Assembly (NCBI GenBank): GCA_021927905.1
Contig: BLLK01000020.1
Coordinates: 1,240,001 to 1,304,000 of the forward strand
Source: Chaetoceros tenuissimus
Lineage: Eukaryota > Bacillariophyta > Thalassiosirophyceae > Chaetocerotales > Chaetocerotaceae
Length of the DNA: 64,000 nucleotides
Reading direction: 5' to 3'
Shown: positions 12,954-48,778 of the stretch, piece after piece
How the letters are laid out: every line of letters begins with the position of its first letter
Numbering within the stretch: the first letter of the stretch is position 1
The notes under the pieces: generated by a model
The model's database searches: none
Told to the model about the DNA's origin: nothing
What the model saw: only the letters and a program-made list of their open reading frames with translations
Position numbers and translations under genes: made by a program

Positions 12954-13475
12954 TTAAATGGACTGGAGAAGGACGAAAATGCTGAGATGAACTTTTAAAT
13001 GAAACAAGTTGCGTTTTTTTGTTTTCGAGTGCACCACTAAATTGTACGTATGGCTACTGTACTTTCTGTAAAATGAGAGAAAAACATCAAAACTCTCTCT
13101 TTATTTCCCATCTCTATCTTTGTCTATAGGGGGAATAATATTTCACCCCAAACAAAACTAAAATGGGCCGCGCCTCTTTCGGAGAAGTGAAGTGTTTTCA
13201 GTTAAAATAAAACGGTACAGCTACAAGTAGCTACGTAATAGGTCCATAGCCAAATTGAGCCATCACTGAAACCCCGCTCCCGCTTGACAGACATTGCTTT
13301 CCTTCTTCTCTTCTCTTGCTTCACCAACACTGAACGCTGCCAAAAATGAATCCTTTTTCCACTTGAATTAGACTGAAGCACACTGCCACTGCATTACACA
13401 CAGCACTCCAAATACAAATCTCAATAGCAACTCGAATACAATTCGAATCATTCGACTAGTCTCGAATTAGATACA
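12954..13475. promoter_or_regulatory. Divergent region containing the duplicated 5' flank of copy A
   Basis: The left 130 bp belong to the fibrillin promoter. From about 13084 to the ATG at 13476 the sequence is nearly identical to 43915-44305 in front of copy B, including the GGGCCGCGCCTCTTTCGG block (about 13164-13182) and two near-TAC-rich stretches. The promoter was therefore duplicated with the gene. Confidence 0.6.
13084..13475 (+). repeat. Duplicated 5' flank, copy A
   Basis: About 390 bp aligning almost base for base with 43915-44305, with only scattered substitutions and small indels. It ends at the ATG of a paralogous gene in both places. The 3' two-thirds are also recognisable, more diverged, upstream of copy C (about 47570-47777). 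Confidence 0.85.
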
Positions 13476-16400
13476 ATGGATTCAGAGTCGCCTTCCAAGT
13501 TGTGTGGGGTTACCTCTCATGCATGCCGCCGTCCACGGAGTTCCAATCAAAATGATGAAAATGCTGCATGCCATTCATCACAAACACTGAACCACAGTAC
13601 AAGGATACACTCATCAAACCTCTCTACTGGCTCACCTAGACCGATTGCACTGAATGAATCAAGCAACCAAGTGTTGGGAGAGACAGAATCTTCACCAATG
13701 AAAACAACACATGTTGAAAAGCCTTTTGAATCAAGTCGAATGCCTACCTCTAAGGAGTAAGTCTATATTGTCTCCAATTGCACATTTTCCATCCTTTTAA
13801 TATTAATTATGGTTTGGTAACACAGGAGTAGCGAACAGGACGAAAATCAAGCTTCTATTGGCCATGATTCTCGAAAACGAAAAGCAGAAAAATCAAATGA
13901 TGATGCCGAAACGAAGAAGCACAAGACAGGTGACATTCGAAACTTCTTCTCTGGACCTTCCACTGGAGCTTCTACTAAAAGGAAGAATGTATCAAAAAAG
14001 AAGAAGTCAAGAACCGAACTGCAAAAGAATCGAGGTCAAGTAGATTTCTACTTTCTCCCAAAAGTCGATGGTGAACTGAAAAGTCCAAGTATTCAATCAA
14101 GGTAAGCACATTTTGCATACTGTATTTCACATTTGATTGTATATTTAGAATTAGTTGTTTATCTTTTTATAAATATAGATCATTGCAAAAACAACCGTCG
14201 GATAGGCAAGATTGGGAAAAGGATGTACCACCGTTGATAAGTAGAGAGAAAGAGATTCTCTCATATGTAGACAAAATCTATAAAGATGCTGATTTGAAAA
14301 CCACAACCATAAGGCATATCAACGAATCCGTCAAAGAAGAGTTTCAGATTGATGAACTCAATGATGAAATAAAGAAATCCATCAAAGCTCATGTGACAAG
14401 ACTCGTCAATGCACCAGATCCCATTCAAGTCCCAGCGGTTGAGGATGGAGCTCGGACTTCACCTCGCGAGATTTGTATTTACGATACTGTTTGTAGACTC
14501 ACTTGTCCAAAAGTAAAAAAGATATTGAAAGAAGTCATTGCCCCACAGTGTTTAGGTAAACTCAAAGAGGATGGACATTATACGGATCCATTTTCTGAAA
14601 ACTTGGAAAATTTGAATTATGGCAATTTTTACCCAAACGAACATTACAAGAGATGCGCAGTGTACTGGCTTCAAGAAGAGGAGAAGTTTGGTGCATCAGC
14701 TGAATTTAACAAGAGAGTGAGCTACTATCAAGAAGAAGCCAACGACGGTGAAGCTCTTCATTTTACAAAAGTACTCACCTGTGACTCCTTCACGCAACTG
14801 CATTGTGACCATGTCGAGAAATGGAGAAATGAGTTTTTCAAATTGATCGGATGCTCATCAAAAGAACTTACCGAACTTACATCATTGAAAGAATTGAAGG
14901 AAAATCATTTATTCCATCTTCTTCTATTATCCCATTTCTTTGAGGAGCGAGACCACACCTACTTTTTGAAGAAACTTGATTTGTTCCTTTTGGAAAGTTG
15001 CGTGCAATTTGAAAATGGTCATGGAGACAAACCGGCATCGATGCACGAAGTTTTTGGAGATGCTAATGATGTATTTTGGGACAACCACAAATTCTGCTCT
15101 GAGAAAGCTGCTTTTCTGAGTAAAAAAATGGAGGAGAAATCAGGCTATGGCATCAAGCACTTTACAGTTGGCGTGTCGAATTTGAACTGGGCGCCTGGAA
15201 TTCACACTGGCCAGGCTGAGAAGCATATTCATTCCACTATTGCGATTGTAAAGACATTCCACACAGAGTTCCGCAACATGTTCCCAAATGCTATACCAGA
15301 GTCTCCTGATATAGATGAATGCTACGATAAGAAATATCTTCTCGAGCATCGTGCCGAAGCACAGAAGAATTGCCGACAAGTTGCTGAAAATATAAAGAAT
15401 GGCGCTCAGCGGACATTGAATTTCGTATGTACCAATAAGTTTGCTTGGAGCTACGATTATGAGAAAAATGAAGAGGTAAAAGATGCTGACCGTGCTGTAG
15501 CTCATCACTTGCAGGTATACTGTGAACTTGGTTATGAAATTTTTCATACAGAAGACGATTTGATATTGTTGTATACGAAGGAATCAAACTCTTTTATATA
15601 CTTCCTTGGGCCGCTCTGCAAGCTTCTTAGCAAATTTTCATTTGATACACCAGAGAATATTGCATCAGCGACCAAACGAGCTGTACGGGCCGAAATCTTC
15701 CGACAGCTTTGCAATATGGCCAAGGGTCGTCCTGATGGTGGTAAGGATGATATTTTTGGAAATATTCTCCTAGCGCACTATCTTGCTACATTGTTGCATC
15801 TTCAGCTTCATATGACATGGATGTTTGCTGTAGCTTTTGGTAAAGATATCTTGACACCGAGAGAGCTCATGAGTCAAGATAGAGAGTATTCTCAAATATC
15901 AAGGAGAGAGAGGAATACTCTATCAATCAGGACCTATGATAGTGAAGGTCGTGATGGGGTCTCAACCGGTGATTTCGATAGCACGATATTTTATTTGGCA
16001 TTGAATATCTATTCTTGTTATCCATTGGAAGAAGCTAGAGTATTGGTTGCAAAGCTTTTCAAAGAGACTGGTGCTAATTTAACAGATTCTGCTATCAGTG
16101 CTCGAAATATAAACTTTGGTAGAGGGAACTATCTGAGCCCTGAACTACAACGTGACTGGATTGCTTTCTATCAAAGTAGTGTGAGACAAAATAGCGGAAA
16201 CTCTAAAGGAAGGAGACAAACCCCTGCAGAAAAGAAAGAGTGCGACAGATGTATTGGTCTTCTCATTGACGAGGTGTGGAAAGTGATTGAAGCAAACCCT
16301 GATGGTGGTGATGATGAAGAAATGTCGATCAAGGTCTGGCTCAAAACAACGGAAGATGAGCAGACCAAAGCGAGAGCGCAGAATAGTGATGCGAATGAAC

Positions 16401-16621
16401 CAAATGTGCAATTCGAAGAGCATCTGCAACTACCTTTTGTTCATGGCGGACTCTTTAACCGGTTTAAAAAGAAGGAAAACCCGAAATACAAGGGATCCTT
16501 TCGACTTGGGCTTCACAAGGTTGAATATCCAAGTAGTCAAGCTTGGAGAATGAAACCGTTTGTAACTCGAAAGAATTACAAATACAAACTTGCCATTGTC
16601 CAAGTTAATCTTCCAGAATAA
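13476..16621 (+). CDS. Unknown-family protein, copy A (3 exons, intact)
   Basis: CDS is join(13476..13756, 13826..14101, 14179..16621), 999 residues; introns of 69 and 77 bp both split codons in phase 2 and are conserved in copies B and C. Exon 1 is Ser/Asn-rich and disordered. Exon 2 has basic clusters (RKRK, KKHK) likely to be nuclear signals, and TGDIRNFF (128-135) plus RGQVDFYF (163-170), both resembling PCNA-binding PIP boxes. Exon 3 (about 186-999) is a large folded region with no recognised domain; conserved blocks include DECYDKKYLL, AVAHHLQVYC, GRPDGGKDDIF, FYLALNIYSCYPL and NINFGRGNYL. No reverse transcriptase, capsid or known transposase motif was seen. It may be a lineage-specific nuclear family or an unclassified mobile element. 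Confidence 0.7.
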
Positions 16622-16752
16622 TGGTGCACAAATTGGATGTGTGCATTCATAATTCATGTTTGTTGATAGAATTTAGAATAATGTATAATGATACAATTGT
16701 ATTTTCTCTATGAATGCACTATACTGTAGGGCGGTCAGTTCAACTCAATTAA

Positions 16753-17438: not shown

Positions 17439-17476
17439 GTGCTGTGGTTTCGTTTGACACAAGAAATGAAAATGCA

Positions 17477-17546
17477 AAAGATAGAGATGGAAAGAAAAGA
17501 GAACGTTTTTGATGATTTTTTAGATACTGAGAACGTAGTACGTACG
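17477..17546 (-). repeat. Dispersed ~70-bp repeat
   Basis: Read on the minus strand, this matches 43889-43955 (TATCTAAAAAATCATCAAAA core and CTCTCTTTTCTT-like stretch) and in part 13084-13135. It therefore links the MITE-fragment locus to the 5' borders of copies A and B. Confidence 0.6.
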
Positions 17547-17630
17547 AGTACGACGGAAGTATCAGCCATCTCAATACTGTTATTAGTCTAGATAATAGTA
17601 CGTACATGAAGATAAAAAAGCAAAAGGGTT

Positions 17631-17713
17631 TCCGCGCAGCAGGATTTGAACCTGCGCTCTGTTAACAGAAATTGATCCTGATTCAACCGACTTAACGACT
17701 CGTCCATACGCGG
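17631..17713 (-). tRNA. tRNA-Leu(CAG)
   Basis: 83 nt that fold as a class II tRNA. Acceptor CCGCGTA pairs with TGCGCGG (one G-T); D stem GAC/GTC; anticodon stem GTTGA/TCAAT around loop ATCAGGA with anticodon CAG at 17678-17680; a long variable arm built on TCTGTTAACAGA; T stem GCAGG/CCTGC with loop TTCAAAT; discriminator A. No intron and no encoded CCA. The D loop reads GAGTCGTTAA, lacking the usual GG pair (one G replaced by C), so it may be a weak or decaying copy. Confidence 0.85.
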
Positions 17714-39918: not shown

Positions 39919-41520
39919 TTAGCAACTTTTTTCTTCGCTGCTTGGAGACTTGACACTTTGAGAGATTGGGTCTGTAAACCTAGAACTTGAGAAGGATCGA
40001 ACGACAACATTTTCTGATTGGTTTGTATTCGCAAATCGAGACGATGATAGTGAACGATGCAGGGAGTGCATAGAATTCTCACTACTTGATTTGGCAAGTT
40101 CTTTCAAGTTTTGGCTACTTTCACTCATGGGCAAGTCGCTTCCTAAAACGCTGAGCGCAATCAATTCATTGGAATGGAGCATTAGCGATTCTTCCGACAC
40201 AGACAACATGTTTTTACCTTGAGGTGAAGCATGTGCCTTCGATAAAAGGTTCAGATATGAAGCAGACTTCCGGATCTGATTACATACTGGGGCTATCGTA
40301 CCAGCTGTATCTTGGTTTGTCTCTCTTTCAACCACATTACCAGTGGCGGTGTTTTCAACTTGACAAGAAGCAGTTATAGTCTGGCCTTGAGAAGTGTTTT
40401 TGTCCGAACCTTGACGATCTCCTTTTTGTACTAGTCCACCTTGCTCTTGAACTTGTTGTCCTTCTTGTTTCTGTTGTTCTTGAATTCTCAAAGTCCGTTG
40501 CAATTCTTCGTACCTAGCTCTCAATTTGAGGAGAGTCTGCTCTACTTCCAGTTCAGCAGCCTTTGGATCTTTCAAAATCTTTTCCATACGATTCAAAACC
40601 GACTGTGAATAAGTCCCTTGCAAACCTGCTCCTTCCAAGTTCATAGCGACACCCTCAACTGATGATGATGCAACGTTGGGGTAATTTTGTTCGTCTTTTG
40701 CCAGCTTCGCAAAATACTTTTGAGCATGAGATCGAATCTGCGAAGATGTCCGCGTCGGTATATTCAGTGCTACCTTCTTCCATTCTCTCCCATGTACTTT
40801 CAACCCTTTGAGAAATGCCTCATGCTCCTCTTTAGTCCATCTACCAGTTGAAGGTTTATTTTTTGTCGATGCTGGTTTTGTCGATGTCGACGATGGTTTT
40901 TTATCACTAACAAGTGCAGATGTAACTATGGTCTTTGGTACTGACTTAGCCAAGGAAGCTCTTGGAAGCGAGGCTACAGTAGCGGCAATCTTCAAAGATG
41001 GATCTTTCCTGTGTACAATGGCTTTTTGCTTTTGTTGTATCGTTTGATGCTTTTCCTGAACTCTTCCATCTTGACTTTCACGACTGTGATTGTCTTGCAT
41101 ACGGACACATTGTTTCTTTTGACTATTACTAGTTGCAGCACCAGTAACAGGTGCACTAGCAGTAGTAGTGATCGCCTTTGGAATATTTAGAAAATCAAAA
41201 CAATCATTTCCAAGAGAATTATCAATCACATCATCGATTTGTTCTCTTGTCATGGGAACATCAGAAAATGAATGCTGCGATTCTTCTAGAGAGCGTTTCA
41301 TAGGTGTGAATGAATGATGTGACGATGCATTGGCAATACAGGCCATGTCTTTATTTATCTTTCGAAAAGTTTTGCTTGATGATGATACTGCTATGGCGAG
41401 TTCGTGTGTCTCTGCTTTACTCTTTTTTTGAGTTGAGCTATTATTGACTTTGTTCTTTTTATCTCGTGTCTGGTCTCCTGTCACTTTTTCTTGGCAAGAT
41501 TGATTATATGTTGGGTTCAT
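39919..41520 (-). CDS. SHAQKYF-type MYB transcription factor
   Basis: 533 residues. A single MYB/SANT repeat of the SHAQKYF class lies at about 226-272: GRWTKEEHEAFLKGLKVHG, then WKKVALNIPTRT and SSQIRSHAQKYFAKL, with the three regularly spaced aromatic positions. This class includes plant circadian regulators (CCA1/LHY/RVE) and is expanded in stramenopiles. A Gln/Glu-rich coiled-coil segment follows (about 320-365), and the flanks are Ser/Thr/Gln-rich. Nuclear. Targets unknown. The long 5' intergenic stretch (988 bp) suggests complex control. Confidence 0.85.
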   Translation of the reverse strand: MNPTYNQSCQEKVTGDQTRDKKNKVNNSSTQKKSKAETHELAIAVSSSSKTFRKINKDMACIANASSHHSFTPMKRSLEESQHSFSDVPMTREQIDDVIDNSLGNDCFDFLNIPKAITTTASAPVTGAATSNSQKKQCVRMQDNHSRESQDGRVQEKHQTIQQKQKAIVHRKDPSLKIAATVASLPRASLAKSVPKTIVTSALVSDKKPSSTSTKPASTKNKPSTGRWTKEEHEAFLKGLKVHGREWKKVALNIPTRTSSQIRSHAQKYFAKLAKDEQNYPNVASSSVEGVAMNLEGAGLQGTYSQSVLNRMEKILKDPKAAELEVEQTLLKLRARYEELQRTLRIQEQQKQEGQQVQEQGGLVQKGDRQGSDKNTSQGQTITASCQVENTATGNVVERETNQDTAGTIAPVCNQIRKSASYLNLLSKAHASPQGKNMLSVSEESLMLHSNELIALSVLGSDLPMSESSQNLKELAKSSSENSMHSLHRSLSSSRFANTNQSENVVVRSFSSSRFTDPISQSVKSPSSEEKSC

Positions 41521-42930: not shown

Positions 42931-43748
42931 TTTGATTCGGTTCTGAGATTTTCTGTCAATAGCAGAGATTTAGGAGTTTATTAACAAGGTTTGTTAAAAG
43001 AGAGTAATGGAATAATGAATGAATGAATGTAATGTAGCTAATATACATGGATGTGCATAGCATAGAGAAGGTGAAAACGAGCTTCTTCTGGTGCATCCTA
43101 GTGCAAAACCATAACCTAAATATTACTATAATATACATATACATAGATTATAGACATAATAGACGTCATTGGATTATATTTCCCATGGTCAACGGTCAAT
43201 CCAACATATACTGCTCCAACGCATCAGCATATACATTTCAATCATTACTTTCAATTTATTGTATTCTAAATAACTTTTAAAATATGTCTAAAAATGAGCA
43301 AGCCCACCAAGAAACCAGTCATTAAACACGCCAATTAGCAAATTCTTTGGAATTTCAAAGTCATCAAAAAATGCAAGTCATCTCATGTTCGCTTTCAAGA
43401 TGATTGACAACTCTTTATCTTTTCTAAAACAGGACATTGGTTGTCCCATCTGATGCTGAGCTTCAGGAATATAACATGATGGAACAGTGCAATGGCAACG
43501 TAGGGTATCACTATGACGGTAGAATAATTGAAATTGTTGCTCAATCAATCATCGATTTATTACATTATCTGCTTGCAGAGCGTGTACGTAGCGTAGTTCC
43601 CCATTTGTAAATAATAAATAATAAAAGGTTGAAAGAAGTATATATTATGTAACGTGTACGTACTTATTTGGTACATTTGAACCTAGACATGAATATTATT
43701 GTAAAACTTGTGTTTATATACCAATTTTTCGAGGTTGCTAGCAACGAA
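42931..43748. other. Intergenic between LSm2 and the permuted tRNA gene
   Basis: About 820 bp. An open stretch without ATG at about 43430-43609 reads like coding sequence (TLVVPSDAELQEYN...), preceded by an acceptor-like AAAACAG, but no partner exon or family was found. TTTATATA (43713-43720) lies about 40 bp upstream of the tRNA sequence and may be its TATA element. A GTTGCTAGCAAC palindrome sits at 43735-43746. Confidence 0.4.
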
Positions 43749-43853
43749 CATCCAAGTAAGCCCTTGGTCGCGGGTTCAAACCCCGCCTCGTGCAGCAAAA
43801 CGTTTCTGACGGCACGTGTAACTCAGTGGTCAGAGTGGGGGTCTTATGAGATG
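43749..43853 (+). promoter_or_regulatory. Bulge-helix-bulge formed by the ends of the permuted tRNA precursor
   Basis: CATC (43749-43752) pairs with GATG (43850-43853). CAAG (43753-43756) pairs with CTTA (43843-43846) with one A-C mismatch. TAA (43757-43759) and TGA (43847-43849) are opposed 3-nt bulges, and the anticodon stem closes the other side. This is the expected substrate shape for tRNA-splicing endonuclease. Confidence 0.7.
43759..43848 (+). tRNA. Circularly permuted tRNA-Ile(UAU) gene
   Basis: The 3' half (43759-43794) lies upstream of the 5' half (43812-43848), with a 17-nt spacer between. Joined 5'-to-3' they make a complete 73-nt cloverleaf. Acceptor GCACGTG/CTCGTGC has 6 of 7 pairs; D stem ACTC/GAGT with loop AGTGGTCA; anticodon stem GGGGT/GCCCT; loop CTTATGA or CTTATAA depending on the exact join, anticodon TAT; variable TGGTC; T stem GCGGG/CCCGC with loop TTCAAAC; discriminator A. 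The break falls in the anticodon loop beside position 37/38, the usual eukaryotic intron site. T runs (TTTTC, TTTTTTT) from 43855 can end Pol III transcription. Neither half has its missing partner in normal order nearby. Confidence 0.85.
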
Positions 43854-43888
43854 CTTTTCTTTTTTCATTTTTTCAATTTTATTCACAC

Positions 43889-43955
43889 GTACGTACTTTC
43901 CCGGTATCTAAAAAATCATCAAAACTCTCTCTTTTCTTCCCATCTTCATCTTTTT
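43889..43955 (+). repeat. Dispersed ~70-bp repeat at the left border of copy B
   Basis: Matches the minus strand of 17477-17546 and partly 13084-13135. It begins within 40 bp of the permuted tRNA terminator and runs into the duplicated 5' flank of copy B. Confidence 0.6.
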
Positions 43956-44305
43956 ACATAGGGGGATAATATTTTACCCCAAACAGAAGTCAAAAGGGTC
44001 GCGCCTCTTTCGGAGAAGTGAAGTGGTTTCAGTTAAAATAAAACGGTACAGCTACAAGTAGCTACATAATAGGTCCATAGCCAAATTGAGCCATCACTGA
44101 AACCCCCGCTCCCGCTTGACAGACATTGCTTTCCTTCTTCTTCTCTTGCTTCACCAACACTGAACGCTGCCAAAAATGAATCCTTTTTCCACTTGAATTA
44201 GACTGAAGCACACTGCCACTGCATTACACACAGCACTCCAAATACAAATCTCAATAGCAACTCGAATACAATTCGAATCATTCGACTAGTCTCGAATTAG
44301 ATACA
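43915..44305 (+). repeat. Duplicated 5' flank, copy B
   Basis: Nearly identical to 13084-13475, ending at the ATG of the paralogous gene. Differences are scattered substitutions and a few 1-3 bp indels. Confidence 0.85.
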
Positions 44306-47300
44306 ATGGATTCAGAGTCGCCTTCCAAGTTGTGTGGGGTTACCTCTCATGCATGCCGCCGTCCACGGAGTTCCAATCAAAATGATGAAAATGCTGCATG
44401 CCATTCATCACAAACACTGAACCACAGTACAAGGATACACTCATCAAACCTCTCTACTGGCTCACCTAGACCGATTGCACTGAATGAATCAAGCAACCAA
44501 GTGTTGGGAGAGACAGAATCTTCACCAATGAAAACAACACATGTTGAAAAGCCTTTTGAATCAAGTCGAATGCCTACCTCCAATGAGTAAGTCTATATTG
44601 TCTCCAATTGCACATTTTCCATCCTTTTAATATTAATTATGGTTTGGTATTACAGGAGCAGTGAACAGGACGAAAATCAAGCTTCTCTCGACCATGCTTC
44701 TCCCAAACGCAAACGAAATGTACAAGAGTCGAATGATGATGCCGAAACGAAGAAGCACAAGACAGGTGACATTCGAAACTTCTTCTCTCCACCTTCCACT
44801 GCATCTTCTACTAAAAGGAAGAGTGTATCAAAAAGGAAGAAGTCAAGAACCGCATCGCAAAAGAATCGAGGTCAAGTCGATTTCTACTTTCTCCCAAAAG
44901 TTGATGTTGAACCAAAGAGTCCAAGTATTCAATCAAGGTAAGCACATTTTGCATACTGTATTTCACATTTGTTTGTACATTTAGAATTAGTTTTTAACCT
45001 TTTTATAAATATAGATCATTGCAAGAAGAACCGTCGGATAGGCAAGATTGGGAAAAGGATGTACCACCGTTGATAAGTAGAGAGAAAGAGATTCTCTCAT
45101 ATGTAGACAAAATCTATAAAGATGCTGATTTGAAAACCACAACCATAAGGCATATCAACGAATCCGTCAAAGAAGAGTTTCAGATTGATGAACTCAATGA
45201 TGAAATAAAGAAATCCATCAAAGCTCATGTGACAAGACTCGTCAATGCACCAGATCCCATTCAAGTCCCAGCGGTTGAGGATGGAGCTCCAACTCTCCCT
45301 CGCACAATTCTTATTTACGATAGTACTCGTAGATTCAATTGTCCACCAGAAGAGAAAAAGATACTGAAAGAAATAGCGTCAAAGTGTCTGGGTAAACTGA
45401 AAGAGGATGGACATTATACAGATCCATTTTCTGAAAATCTCCAACATTTGAACTATGGCAATTTTTACCAAAACTACCAGGGACCTGCAGTGTACTTTCA
45501 TCATGGAGATGAAAAGGTTGACTCAAAGTTCGGCTCAACTGTTAACTTTGGCACGAGAATGGGATACTACCAACAAGAAGCCAATGGTGTAGCTCCTCAC
45601 GTTACCAAAGTAATCACTTTGAACTCCCTTACAAAACATCATGCTGATCATGTTGAGAAATACAGAAAACAGTTGCTAAAAGAGATGGGATGCTCGTCAG
45701 AAGAACCGACATCACTGCAAGATTTCAAGAATGATCCTCATTTTCAACTATCCGCACTTTACTATTTTGAGCAGAAGCACTGCCACACCGACTATTCAAA
45801 GAGATGGGACTTGTCTTTCCTTGAGAGTTGCGTACAATGCGACAATGGATATGAAGACGAACCGGCATCGATGCATGAATTTTTAGCAGCTTCCAATCGT
45901 ATATTTTGGAACAACTACAACTTCTGCTCCGAGAAAGCTGCTTTTCTGACCAAAAAAATGGAGGAGAAATCAGGCTATGGCATCAAGCACTTTACAGTTG
46001 GTGTGCCCAATTTATCATGGCACCCTGGAATTCGTTCAGGCTCAGAACCATTTGTATTCAAAACCAACCATTACAGGGACATGGCATGAACAGTACCGTG
46101 ATATGTTTCCAAAAGATGCTATACCTGAGTCTTCTGATATAGACGAATGCTACGATAAGAAATATCTTCTCAAGCATCGTGCCGAAGCGCAAAAGAATTG
46201 CCGAATAGTTGCTGAAAATATAAAGAATGGCGCTCAGCGGACAGTGAATTACGTTGATACGAATGAGGTGGCTTTTAGCTATGATTTTGAGAAAAACCAA
46301 GAGGTAAAAGATGCTGACCTTGCTGTAGCTCATCACTTGCAGGTATACTGTGATCTTGGTTACGAAATTTTTCATCACGAAGACGAAATGTTTTTGTTGT
46401 ATACGAAGGAATCAAACTCTTTCGTTTATTTTCTTGGCCCACTTTGTAAGTTACTTGGCAAATTCTCATTTGATACACCAGAAAATATTAAATCAGCAAC
46501 AAAACGAGCTGTATGGGCCGAAATATTACGACAGCTTTGCAATCTTGCAAAGGGTCGTCCAGACGGTGGCAAGGATGATATATTTCAAAACATTCTCCTA
46601 GCGCACTATCTTTCCACCGTATTACATCTGCAGTTTCACATGCCCTGGAGGTTCCCTGTGTTGCTAGGCAAAGACATTTTGACCCCTAGAGAAGTCTTTG
46701 CTCGAAATAGAGAGTTTACTCAAATGCCACAGAGAGCAAGAAATACTACAACTGTCCGCAGCCGTACTGATCGCAGTGGAGATCGCCAAGGAGCCTCAAC
46801 CGGTGACTTTGAAAGCAAAATATTCTATTTGGCATTGAATATCTATTCTTGTTATCCATTGCATGTTGCTAGAAAAATGGTTGCAGATCTTTTTCGTGAT
46901 ACAGCTGGAAATTTGGTCATGGCTACCGTTAGTGCTCGAAACATAAACTTTGGTAGAGGGAATTATCTGAGTGATGAACTGCAACGCGACTGGAATGATT
47001 TCTATCAAAGTAGTGTGAGACAGAACAGCGGAAACTCTAATGGAAGAAGACAAACTCCTGCGGAGAAGAAAGAGCGCGACAGATGTGTTGGTCTTCTTAC
47101 TGGGAAAGCAATGAAAGTGATTCGAGCAAACCCTATCCTGGGTGGTGACTTCTATATCTGGCATCAAACAGATGACAATGAGAAAGCTATAGCTGAAGCG
47201 CAGAATAGTGATGCGCAACGTCCAAATTTGCAATTCGATCAGCTCCTGCAACTTCCTTACGTACATGAAGGACTCCGAACCAGATTGAAGGCAGAAAATA

Positions 47301-47410
47301 AAAAGTTCAAGAAATCATTTCGACTAGGTTTTCACCAGGTCAAACCATTGGTAACTCGAAAGAATGGTGAATGGAAACTTGCTGAAATCAGAGTTGAACC
47401 TCCACCATAA
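44306..47410 (+). pseudogene. Unknown-family protein, copy B (3 exons, one frame break)
   Basis: Exons 44306..44586, 44656..44937 and 45015..47410 with the same phase-2 introns as copy A. Exon 1 is almost identical to copy A (only the last few codons differ), and exon 3 stays near-identical for about 90 codons (through QVPAVEDGA), then drops abruptly to clearly lower identity. Relative to copy A, copy B lacks 5 bp at about 46040-46060, so the frame that begins at exon 3 ends at 46089 while the homologous frame continues to 47410. All conserved blocks (GRPDGGKDDIF, NINFGRGNYL) persist beyond it. Either a recent pseudogene or an assembly or sequencing error. The 3' flank has a short tandem repeat of GTGCACAGATTGGATGTGTG. 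Confidence 0.7.
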
Positions 47411-47777
47411 TGATGCACAGATTGGATGTGTGTATTCATTGAGATAAACTTGCAACACTCGCCACAACAGAATGATGGTGCACAGATTGGATGTGTGCAT
47501 TCATAATTCATAAAAGTTCATGTATAATAAACCTTTATCAATTTCATCAATTGTTTTCATTTTCTTTCCATAGGTTCTTTCAACTTCCTGAGTTTCTGCA
47601 AGCGACCAAGCAGAGACACCTTTTTCCACACTGCAGCAACAGAGCAAATAATGAACCTTTTCAATTGAATGAGACTGGAGCACACTGTCACTGCGTTACA
47701 CAAAGCACTCCAAATACAAATCTCAATAGTGATTCCAATACAATTCGAATTCTTTGATTAGTCTCTAATGCATTACA
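47411..47777. other. Spacer between copies B and C
   Basis: The 3' flank of copy B (GATGCACAGATTGGATGTGT) is duplicated at about 47473-47500. The right part (about 47570-47777) is a diverged version of the 5' flank shared by copies A and B. No separate gene. Confidence 0.6.
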
Positions 47778-48778
47778 ATGGAGTCAGAGTCGCCTTCCAA
47801 ATCAAACCGGAGTTCCTCTCATGCATGCCGTCCATGGACAGCCCCTCAAAATGACGAGAATGAATACCGTTCACCTCAAACACCAAAACTAGGAGCTTCA
47901 ATGCATACATCCAGCCTTTCTACTAGTCCCTGTCGACCGATTGCACTGAATGAATCAAACAATCAAGTGTTGGGAGACACGGAATCTCAAGTAAAAGCGA
48001 CACATGTTGAAAAGCCTTCCAAATTGAATCAGATGCCTACCTCTGATGAGTAAGTCTATATTGCTTCCATTCATGTCTCTTCCATCCTTTTAATATTAAA
48101 TTCCGTTTGGTATTACAGGAGTAGCCAGCAGGAAGAAAATCAAGCTTCTATTGGTCATGATTCTCGAAAACGAAATGCAGAAAAATCAAATATTGATCCT
48201 GAAACGAAGAAGCTCAAGACCAGCGACATCCGAAACTTCTTCTCTGGACCTTCTGCCCAATCTTCTACAAAAAGGAAGAAGTCAAAACAGAAGAAGAAGT
48301 CAAGAAACGCACCGCAAAAGAATCGAGGTCAGGTCGATTTCAACTTTTGCCCAAAAGTCGATGGTGAACTGAAAAGTCCAAGTATTCAATCAAGGTAAGC
48401 ACATTTTGCATTCTGCATTTCACATTTGATTGTATATTTAGAATTAGTTGTTTATCTTTTTATAACTATAGATCATTGCAAAAACAACCGTCGGATAGGC
48501 AAGATTGGGAAAAGGATGTACCGCCGTTGATAAGTAGAGAGAAAGAGATTCTCTCATATGTAGACAAAATCTATAAAGATGCTGATTTGAAAACCACAAC
48601 CATAAGGCATATCAACGAATCCGTCAAAGAAGAGTTTCAGATTGAAGTAGGGTTTGCTCGAATCACTTTCATTGCTTTCCCAGTAAGAAGACCAACACAT
48701 CTGTCGCGCTCTTTCTTCTCCGCAGGAGTTTGTCTTTTTCCATTGGAGTTTCCGCTGTTCTGTCTCACACTACTTTGA
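47778..48778 (+). pseudogene. Unknown-family copy C: 5' part fused to an inverted 3' fragment
   Basis: Exons 47778..48049, 48119..48394 and 48472..48778 keep the family's intron positions and stay in frame (284 codons). Exon 3 follows copies A and B almost exactly through FKEEFQIE-equivalent residues and then, at about 48645, switches into antisense family sequence and ends at 48778. The PIP-like motif is kept as TSDIRNFF. More diverged from A and B in exons 1-2 than they are from each other, yet near-identical to them in early exon 3. Probably a rearranged pseudogene that may still be transcribed. Confidence 0.75.

What the first reader, a model, noticed from the sequence alone, without database searches (positions are those of the whole stretch)
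43749..43853. Circularly permuted tRNA-Ile(UAU) gene in a diatom-like genome
The 3' half of a tRNA (43759-43794) lies upstream of its 5' half (43812-43848). Joined in the order 5' half then 3' half they give a full cloverleaf with an Ile(UAU) anticodon. The precursor ends form a near-perfect bulge-helix-bulge: 4-bp outer helix, 3-nt bulge, 4-bp central helix with one mismatch, 3-nt bulge, then the anticodon stem, with the break at the canonical 37/38 site. Permuted tRNA genes are known from a red alga, some green algae, a chlorarachniophyte nucleomorph and archaea; I am not aware of one described in diatoms.
Basis: partly seen in the sequence, partly recalled or inferred. Interest (0 to 1): 0.93.

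Follow-up and report, generated by a model that had tools for sequence, protein, structure and literature searches.

The report
Back-to-front tRNA gene in a diatom
A diatom carries the two halves of one transfer-RNA gene in swapped order, with the signals needed to cut, circularise and re-join them, and it appears to be the genome's only gene for that tRNA.

Summary
Joined 5'+3' they give tRNA-Ile(UAU) by ARAGORN. A covariance model of permuted ordinary tRNAs of this genome, candidate excluded, scores it 57.9 bits, E 7e-15 in 64 kb. The junction forms a bulge-helix-bulge at 37/38 (chance about 0.002). TATATA starts 44 nt upstream, a spacing like that of 11 of 41 ordinary tRNA genes here, and a T-run follows. 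One refuting test was run: four UAU 5'-half patterns over 41 Mb matched only this locus; the matched AAU control found all five known genes. Splicing-endonuclease and RtcB genes are present. Best reading: a working type II permuted tRNA gene matured through a circular RNA, probably the only Ile(UAU) gene; a new member of a known kind, with no diatom case in the paper searches made. Weak points: no RNA data, no relatives, G37 where A37 is usual, a U6-U67 mismatch, and an ordinary gene with an atypical D arm could have escaped.

The parts
43715..43720 (+). TATATA, putative upstream Pol III promoter element (TATA starts 44 and 42 nt before the 3' half)
   Evidence: TATA starts at -50..-41 in 11 of 41 ordinary nuclear tRNA genes, 3.8% in background
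43742..43744 (+). CAA, possible transcription start region (inferred; another CAA lies at 43753)
   Evidence: CAA in the last 14 nt before 27 of 41 ordinary tRNA genes, background 0.288; the start itself is not shown
43749..43758 (+). leader strand of the bulge-helix-bulge: outer CATC, central CAAG, bulge UA
   Evidence: sequence; chance estimate
43759..43794 (+). 3' half of tRNA (positions 38-73), B box 43773-43783, no CCA encoded
43795..43811 (+). intervening sequence, 17 nt, without T4 run
43812..43848 (+). 5' half of tRNA (positions 1-37), A box 43819-43829, anticodon TAT 43845-43847
43849..43853 (+). trailer strand of the bulge-helix-bulge: bulge A, outer GATG
43855..43865 (+). TTTTCTTTTTT, putative Pol III terminator
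   Evidence: T4+ within 30 nt downstream in 41 of 41 ordinary genes

Best explanation
A functional, single-copy, circularly permuted tRNA gene with anticodon UAU (junction 37/38, type II) in the nuclear genome of a diatom. Inferred route: Pol III starts near 43742-43748 from the upstream TATA element and stops in the T-run at 43855. The RNA ends form a bulge-helix-bulge. The tRNA-splicing endonuclease cuts after position 37 and before position 38. A ligase (RtcB is present) joins 37 to 38 and makes a circle. RNase P and tRNase Z remove the 17-nt spacer from the acceptor end, and CCA is added. Shown: sequence, structure, statistics, promoter and terminator resemblance, machinery genes, and no second UAU 5' half in four searched frames. 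Inferred: transcription, circle, charging, decoding of AUA.
For: Permuted-tRNA model built without the candidate: 57.9 bits, the best of 118 hits in 345 kb of held sequence (51 sources, some overlapping); next is 47.7, a tandem Ala pair, and the rest are at most 31.0. ARAGORN on joined order: Ile(tat). Stem pairing 11 of 12 against 0 of 182 mixed pairs. Bulge-helix-bulge with the C32-G anticodon-intron pair in place; chance 0.0019, Watson-Crick only 0.00024. U8, A14, G15-C48, G18G19, U33, TTC, A58 and A73 present (read; rules partly from PMC3978253 section 4, partly recalled). TATA and T-run as in ordinary genes. UAU 5'-half patterns: 1, 0, 0, 0 hits in 41 Mb, the 1 being this locus; AAU control finds all five known Ile(AAU) genes plus one match unlike a tRNA. 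DNA search with the joined tRNA finds only this locus. Sen-type catalytic domain and RtcB present. AUA is 173 of 590 Ile codons in 21 mechanical window ORFs of 300 aa or more.
Against: G37 after U36, where A37 (t6A) is usual; U6-U67 mismatch; A10-U25 instead of G10; C-A mismatch in the central helix, which alone is met by 7.8% of random flanks; ordinary precursor fold (z -0.87). No RNA reads, no related strain. The trailer and T-run belong to a block shared with other loci, so they may not have arisen for this gene. The four UAU patterns cover the D arms of 38 of 42 sampled gene rows (one Leu gene counted twice), so an ordinary gene with an unusual D arm could have escaped. The DNA search did not report even the ordinary Ile(AAU) genes, so it excludes close copies only.
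Confidence: 0.82

Rival explanations
1. A relic: two halves left from a tandem duplication of an Ile(UAU) gene that lost its outer parts and is no longer expressed.
For: Truncated tRNA copies occur in this genome: beside Ala in L023, beside Thr in L042, and a Lys-like copy in L050. The candidate has a U6-U67 mismatch and G37. The T-run and trailer are part of a duplicated block.
Against: The usual tertiary residues are intact, both breakpoints fall at 37/38, the leader pairs with trailer and anticodon loop, TATA sits at a usual distance, and no other UAU gene was found although AUA is common.
Confidence: 0.12
2. Parts of two ordinary tRNA genes with introns, one upstream and one downstream, seen side by side.
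For: The permuted model also scores halves of ordinary genes, roughly 10-31 bits, and a tandem pair 47.7.
Against: ARAGORN with introns up to 1000 nt finds no gene in L001 or at this place in the window. The spliced-order search finds only these two pieces. A T-run follows the 5' half at once. The two halves pair with each other in 11 of 12 stem positions.
Confidence: 0.03
3. A working permuted gene, but cut one base earlier in both bulges, giving loop CUUAUAA with A37 rather than CUUAUGA with G37. This is a variant of the best reading; its share overlaps with it.
For: Both bulges begin with U (UGA, UAA), so a shifted cut leaves a seven-base loop with the usual A37; ARAGORN accepts it.
Against: Known splicing cuts after the second bulge base (recalled); a shift in both bulges is not known to me. 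By base count about one in four random leaders would allow it.
Confidence: 0.06

Closest known systems
Type II (37/38) circularly permuted tRNA genes of green algae and the red alga C. merolae (Soma 2014 review, PMC3978253, Table 1)
   Same: 3' half upstream of 5' half, junction 37/38 (26 of the 34 genes in that table), bulge-helix-bulge at the junction, intervening sequence within the 1-74 bp range, no encoded CCA; upstream TATA-like and downstream T-stretch as in C. merolae
   Different: Host is a diatom; the tRNA is Ile(UAU), which is not in that table; a 4-bp outer helix is present, whereas the green-algal and nucleomorph ones are described as hBH
C. merolae tRNA-Ile(UAU) with three introns (PMC9602550, search listing and passages seen)
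   Same: Same isoacceptor in an alga with an unusual gene structure
   Different: There introns, here circular permutation; no homology tested
Permuted tRNA genes of Auxenochlorella (PMC12633428, passages seen)
   Same: Permuted genes found after tRNAscan-SE gave an incomplete set
   Different: Green alga; details are in a supplementary figure I did not see

Membership tests
Circularly permuted tRNA gene | 3' half lies upstream of 5' half on the same strand with a short intervening sequence | tested here: met
Circularly permuted tRNA gene | Halves joined 5' then 3' give one complete tRNA cloverleaf | tested here: met
   one acceptor mismatch
Circularly permuted tRNA gene | Bulge-helix-bulge at the junction of precursor ends | tested here: met
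   one C-A mismatch in the central helix
Circularly permuted tRNA gene | Upstream TATA-like element, downstream T-stretch, no terminator within the spacer (usual, not defining) | tested here: met
Circularly permuted tRNA gene | Circular RNA intermediate and mature charged tRNA | not testable with these tools
   no RNA data held
Circularly permuted tRNA gene | tRNA-splicing endonuclease and ligase in the genome | tested here: met
   one strong Sen-type domain with Tyr, His and Lys aligned to archaeal EndA (that these are the catalytic residues is recalled), one weak domain under the Pfam cut-off and without a match in solved structures; RtcB in two pieces; Trl1-type ligase search silent, as were its 14 controls
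tRNA-Ile(UAU) | Anticodon UAU | tested here: met
tRNA-Ile(UAU) | A37 (t6A site): usual trait, recalled, not the definition of the isoacceptor | tested here: not met
   G37 with the canonical cut; A37 only if both cuts shift by one
tRNA-Ile(UAU) | Charged with isoleucine | not testable with these tools
   anticodon arm resembles the genome's Ile(AAU), A73 present
Ordinary (non-permuted) Ile(UAU) gene in the same genome | A second UAU 5' half in 41 Mb | tested here: inconclusive
   none found with a working control, but the D-arm frames cover 38 of 42 sampled gene rows

The most novel reading that the evidence does not exclude
A diatom decodes AUA through one permuted tRNA gene and has no ordinary Ile(UAU) gene. 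The permutation arose in stramenopiles independently of red and green algae. The trailer strand of its splice motif and its terminator were borrowed from a pre-existing block upstream of a neighbouring gene family, rather than inherited from a tRNA intron.
Probability: 0.4. Interest if true: 0.78.

Novelty: new member of a known kind. Interest (0 to 1): 0.66.

Why it matters
The 2014 review lists 34 permuted tRNA genes from a red alga, green algae, a green-derived nucleomorph and one archaeon (PMC3978253). A diatom case would add a lineage far from these and favour repeated independent origin. As the apparent only gene for an isoacceptor that reads a common codon, it would make the diatom depend on circular tRNA processing, which can be tested in culture. 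It also warns that standard tRNA annotation misses such genes.

Tried and rejected
SINE or repeat: rejected, the tRNA part is single copy in the DNA searches. Organelle-derived piece: no match on the two organelle contigs (close copies only). Rfam YrlA match over the locus: 25.7 bits against a cut-off of 69, E 0.14, rejected. Homology of the spacer plus 5' half with the sequence behind two Leu tRNAs: 438 and 124 of 1000 shuffles do as well, so not shown. Relatives of the two halves in viral contigs (both halves) and GTDB genomes (5' half only): none by exact match; those collections are not expected to hold diatoms. A full tRNA inventory was not possible: the family search scored 63 of 2031 candidates. 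Genome-wide search for further permuted genes was not possible; only 345 kb was scanned, and of its 118 hits I looked at the letters of those in the window, L042 and L023 only. A paper search on position 37 returned nothing.

Full report
What is there. At 43759-43794 lies the 3' half of a tRNA, then a 17-nt spacer, then the 5' half at 43812-43848. ARAGORN and Rfam at its gathering cut-off find only a tRNA-Leu elsewhere in the window, and ARAGORN allowing introns to 1000 nt finds no gene here. Joined 5' then 3', the 73 nt are called tRNA-Ile(tat), with one acceptor mismatch (U6-U67) and two G-U pairs in the anticodon stem. Reading the sequence, U8, A14, G15-C48, G18G19, U33, T54T55C56, A58 and A73 are in place; A10-U25 departs from the usual G10.

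Is it more than chance? I permuted 14 ordinary nuclear tRNAs of this genome at 37/38, with random spacers, and built a covariance model from them without the candidate. The candidate scores 57.9 bits, E 7e-15 in the window; the only other window hit is 12 bits. E-values of such a shortly calibrated model are rough. Over 345 kb of held sequence (51 sources, some overlapping) it is the best of 118 hits. The next, 47.7 bits, is a truncated tRNA-Ala directly before an intact one, and the rest are at most 31.0 bits. Of these I looked at the letters of the hits in L042 and L023 only: they are halves of ordinary genes or truncated Thr and Ala copies. The two halves belong together: 11 of 12 acceptor and anticodon-stem positions pair, while none of 182 mixed pairs of ordinary halves exceeds 10.

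Splice motif. Leader CATC-CAAG-UA and trailer A-GATG give a 4-bp outer helix, a central helix of three pairs plus C-A, and two 3-nt bulges, with the cut at 37/38. Random flanks from this genome do as well in 0.19% of trials, or 0.024% with Watson-Crick pairs only; any 7 of 8 pairs occur in 0.46%, and the central helix alone in 7.8%. The predicted fold of the linear precursor is not the cloverleaf and is not unusually stable (z -0.87), so energy alone gives no support.

Transcription signals. TATATA at 43715-43720: TATA starts 44 and 42 nt before the 3' half. Among 41 ordinary nuclear tRNA genes, 11 have TATA starting at -50 to -41, against 3.8% of background; 16 of 41 have it at -50 to -31, against 7.4%. 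So many ordinary genes here lack it. All 41 have a T4 run within 30 nt downstream; here one starts 7 nt after the 5' half, and none lies in the spacer.

Organism. The window lies in a 41,027,912-base genome of 68 contigs; contigs C67 (36,047 bases) and C68 (116,465) carry organelle-like tRNA sets. The C. tenuissimus NIES-3715 paper (PMC8613185, passages seen) gives 41.0 Mb, a 36,047-bp mitochondrial and a 116,464-bp chloroplast genome, and a largest scaffold of 4.46 Mb; C34 has 4,456,483 bases. It counts 85 scaffolds, here there are 68 contigs. This identifies the genome by size match, not by name.

Is there an ordinary copy? The joined tRNA as DNA query finds only these two pieces, but that search did not report the ordinary Ile(AAU) genes either, so it excludes close copies only. 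Four 5'-half patterns with anticodon UAU, one per D-loop type, found 1, 0, 0 and 0 matches in 41 Mb; the one is this gene. The backwards control patterns of those four searches gave two chance matches in all, one and one. The matched AAU pattern finds all five Ile(AAU) genes known, and one further match that does not look like a tRNA. The four frames fit 38 of 42 sampled gene rows (one Leu gene counted twice); Leu and Val fall outside. AUA makes up 173 of 590 Ile codons in 21 mechanical window ORFs of 300 aa or more. The gene is thus probably the sole Ile(UAU) gene, which argues for function. Inosine-34 of Ile(AAU) could read AUA in part (recalled), so necessity is not proven.

Machinery. One strong tRNA-splicing-endonuclease domain, with Tyr, His and Lys aligned to archaeal EndA (their catalytic role is recalled), and one weak one, below the Pfam cut-off and with no match among solved structures, and an RtcB ligase in two pieces, are in the genome. 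A Trl1-type ligase was not found, but none of its 14 control genomes rang either.

Surroundings and origin. From 43846 on, the sequence is homologous to a block on contig C48 that lies behind tRNA-Leu(UAA), and part of it recurs behind tRNA-Leu(CAG) at 17476-17549. The stretch TGAGATG of the trailer is common to all three places. So the trailer strand of the motif and the T-run may have been taken over from resident sequence, whereas the review describes a tandem duplication of an intron-bearing gene with loss of the outer exons, besides reverse-transcription models (PMC3978253 section 10, part 1). Truncated tRNA copies near intact ones (L023, L042) show that partial duplications happen here. 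The origin remains open.

Weak points. G37 follows U36, where A37 is usual (recalled; PMC9602550, passages, names t6A37 in yeast tRNA and suspects it in tRNA-Ile(UAU) of C. merolae). A cut one base earlier in both bulges would give A37, but this is speculation. No RNA data or relatives were available.

Known or new. Soma's review (PMC3978253: outline, sections 5, 6 and 8, part 1 of sections 4 and 10 read) lists 34 permuted genes, 26 of them with the junction at 37/38, none from a diatom and none for Ile(UAU). Searches for permuted tRNA with diatom, with stramenopile and with named algae, for permuted tRNA alone, and for bulge-helix-bulge with diatom showed no diatom case in the listings; one search listed 15 of 3,768 papers, five of six, 31 of 33. 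I opened passages of PMC12633428, PMC4090602, PMC8450103 and PMC13353863, and not PMC4929541. I did not read Soma 2007 or Maruyama 2010, which I saw only in reference lists and in the review. The library lacks most subscription papers.

Verdict. A real permuted tRNA gene, very probably working, new for diatoms as far as I could search: a new member of a known kind.

Noticed in passing
window 43846-43960; 17476-17549 (minus); L051 4953-5060: The same block (TGAGATG, CGTACGTACT-like, TATCTAAAAAATCATCAAAA) lies within about 150 nt downstream of three tRNA loci: the permuted gene, Leu(CAG) and Leu(UAA).
   Followed up: partly
window 13080-16650, 43912-47440, 47644-48645; C48 867952; C58 276389: A duplicated gene family (DEK_C match just under the Pfam cut-off) with three copies in the window and two elsewhere.
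   Followed up: partly
window 17631-17713 (minus): The tRNA-Leu(CAG) gene scores only 50.9 bits and lacks the usual GG in its D loop; possibly divergent or decaying.
   Followed up: no
L023 1404-1463, L042 4767-4826, L050 4900-4957: Truncated tRNA copies (Ala, Thr, Lys-like); the first two sit next to an intact gene of the same type.
   Followed up: partly
window 39919-41520 (minus): An open reading frame with a Myb DNA-binding domain.
   Followed up: no
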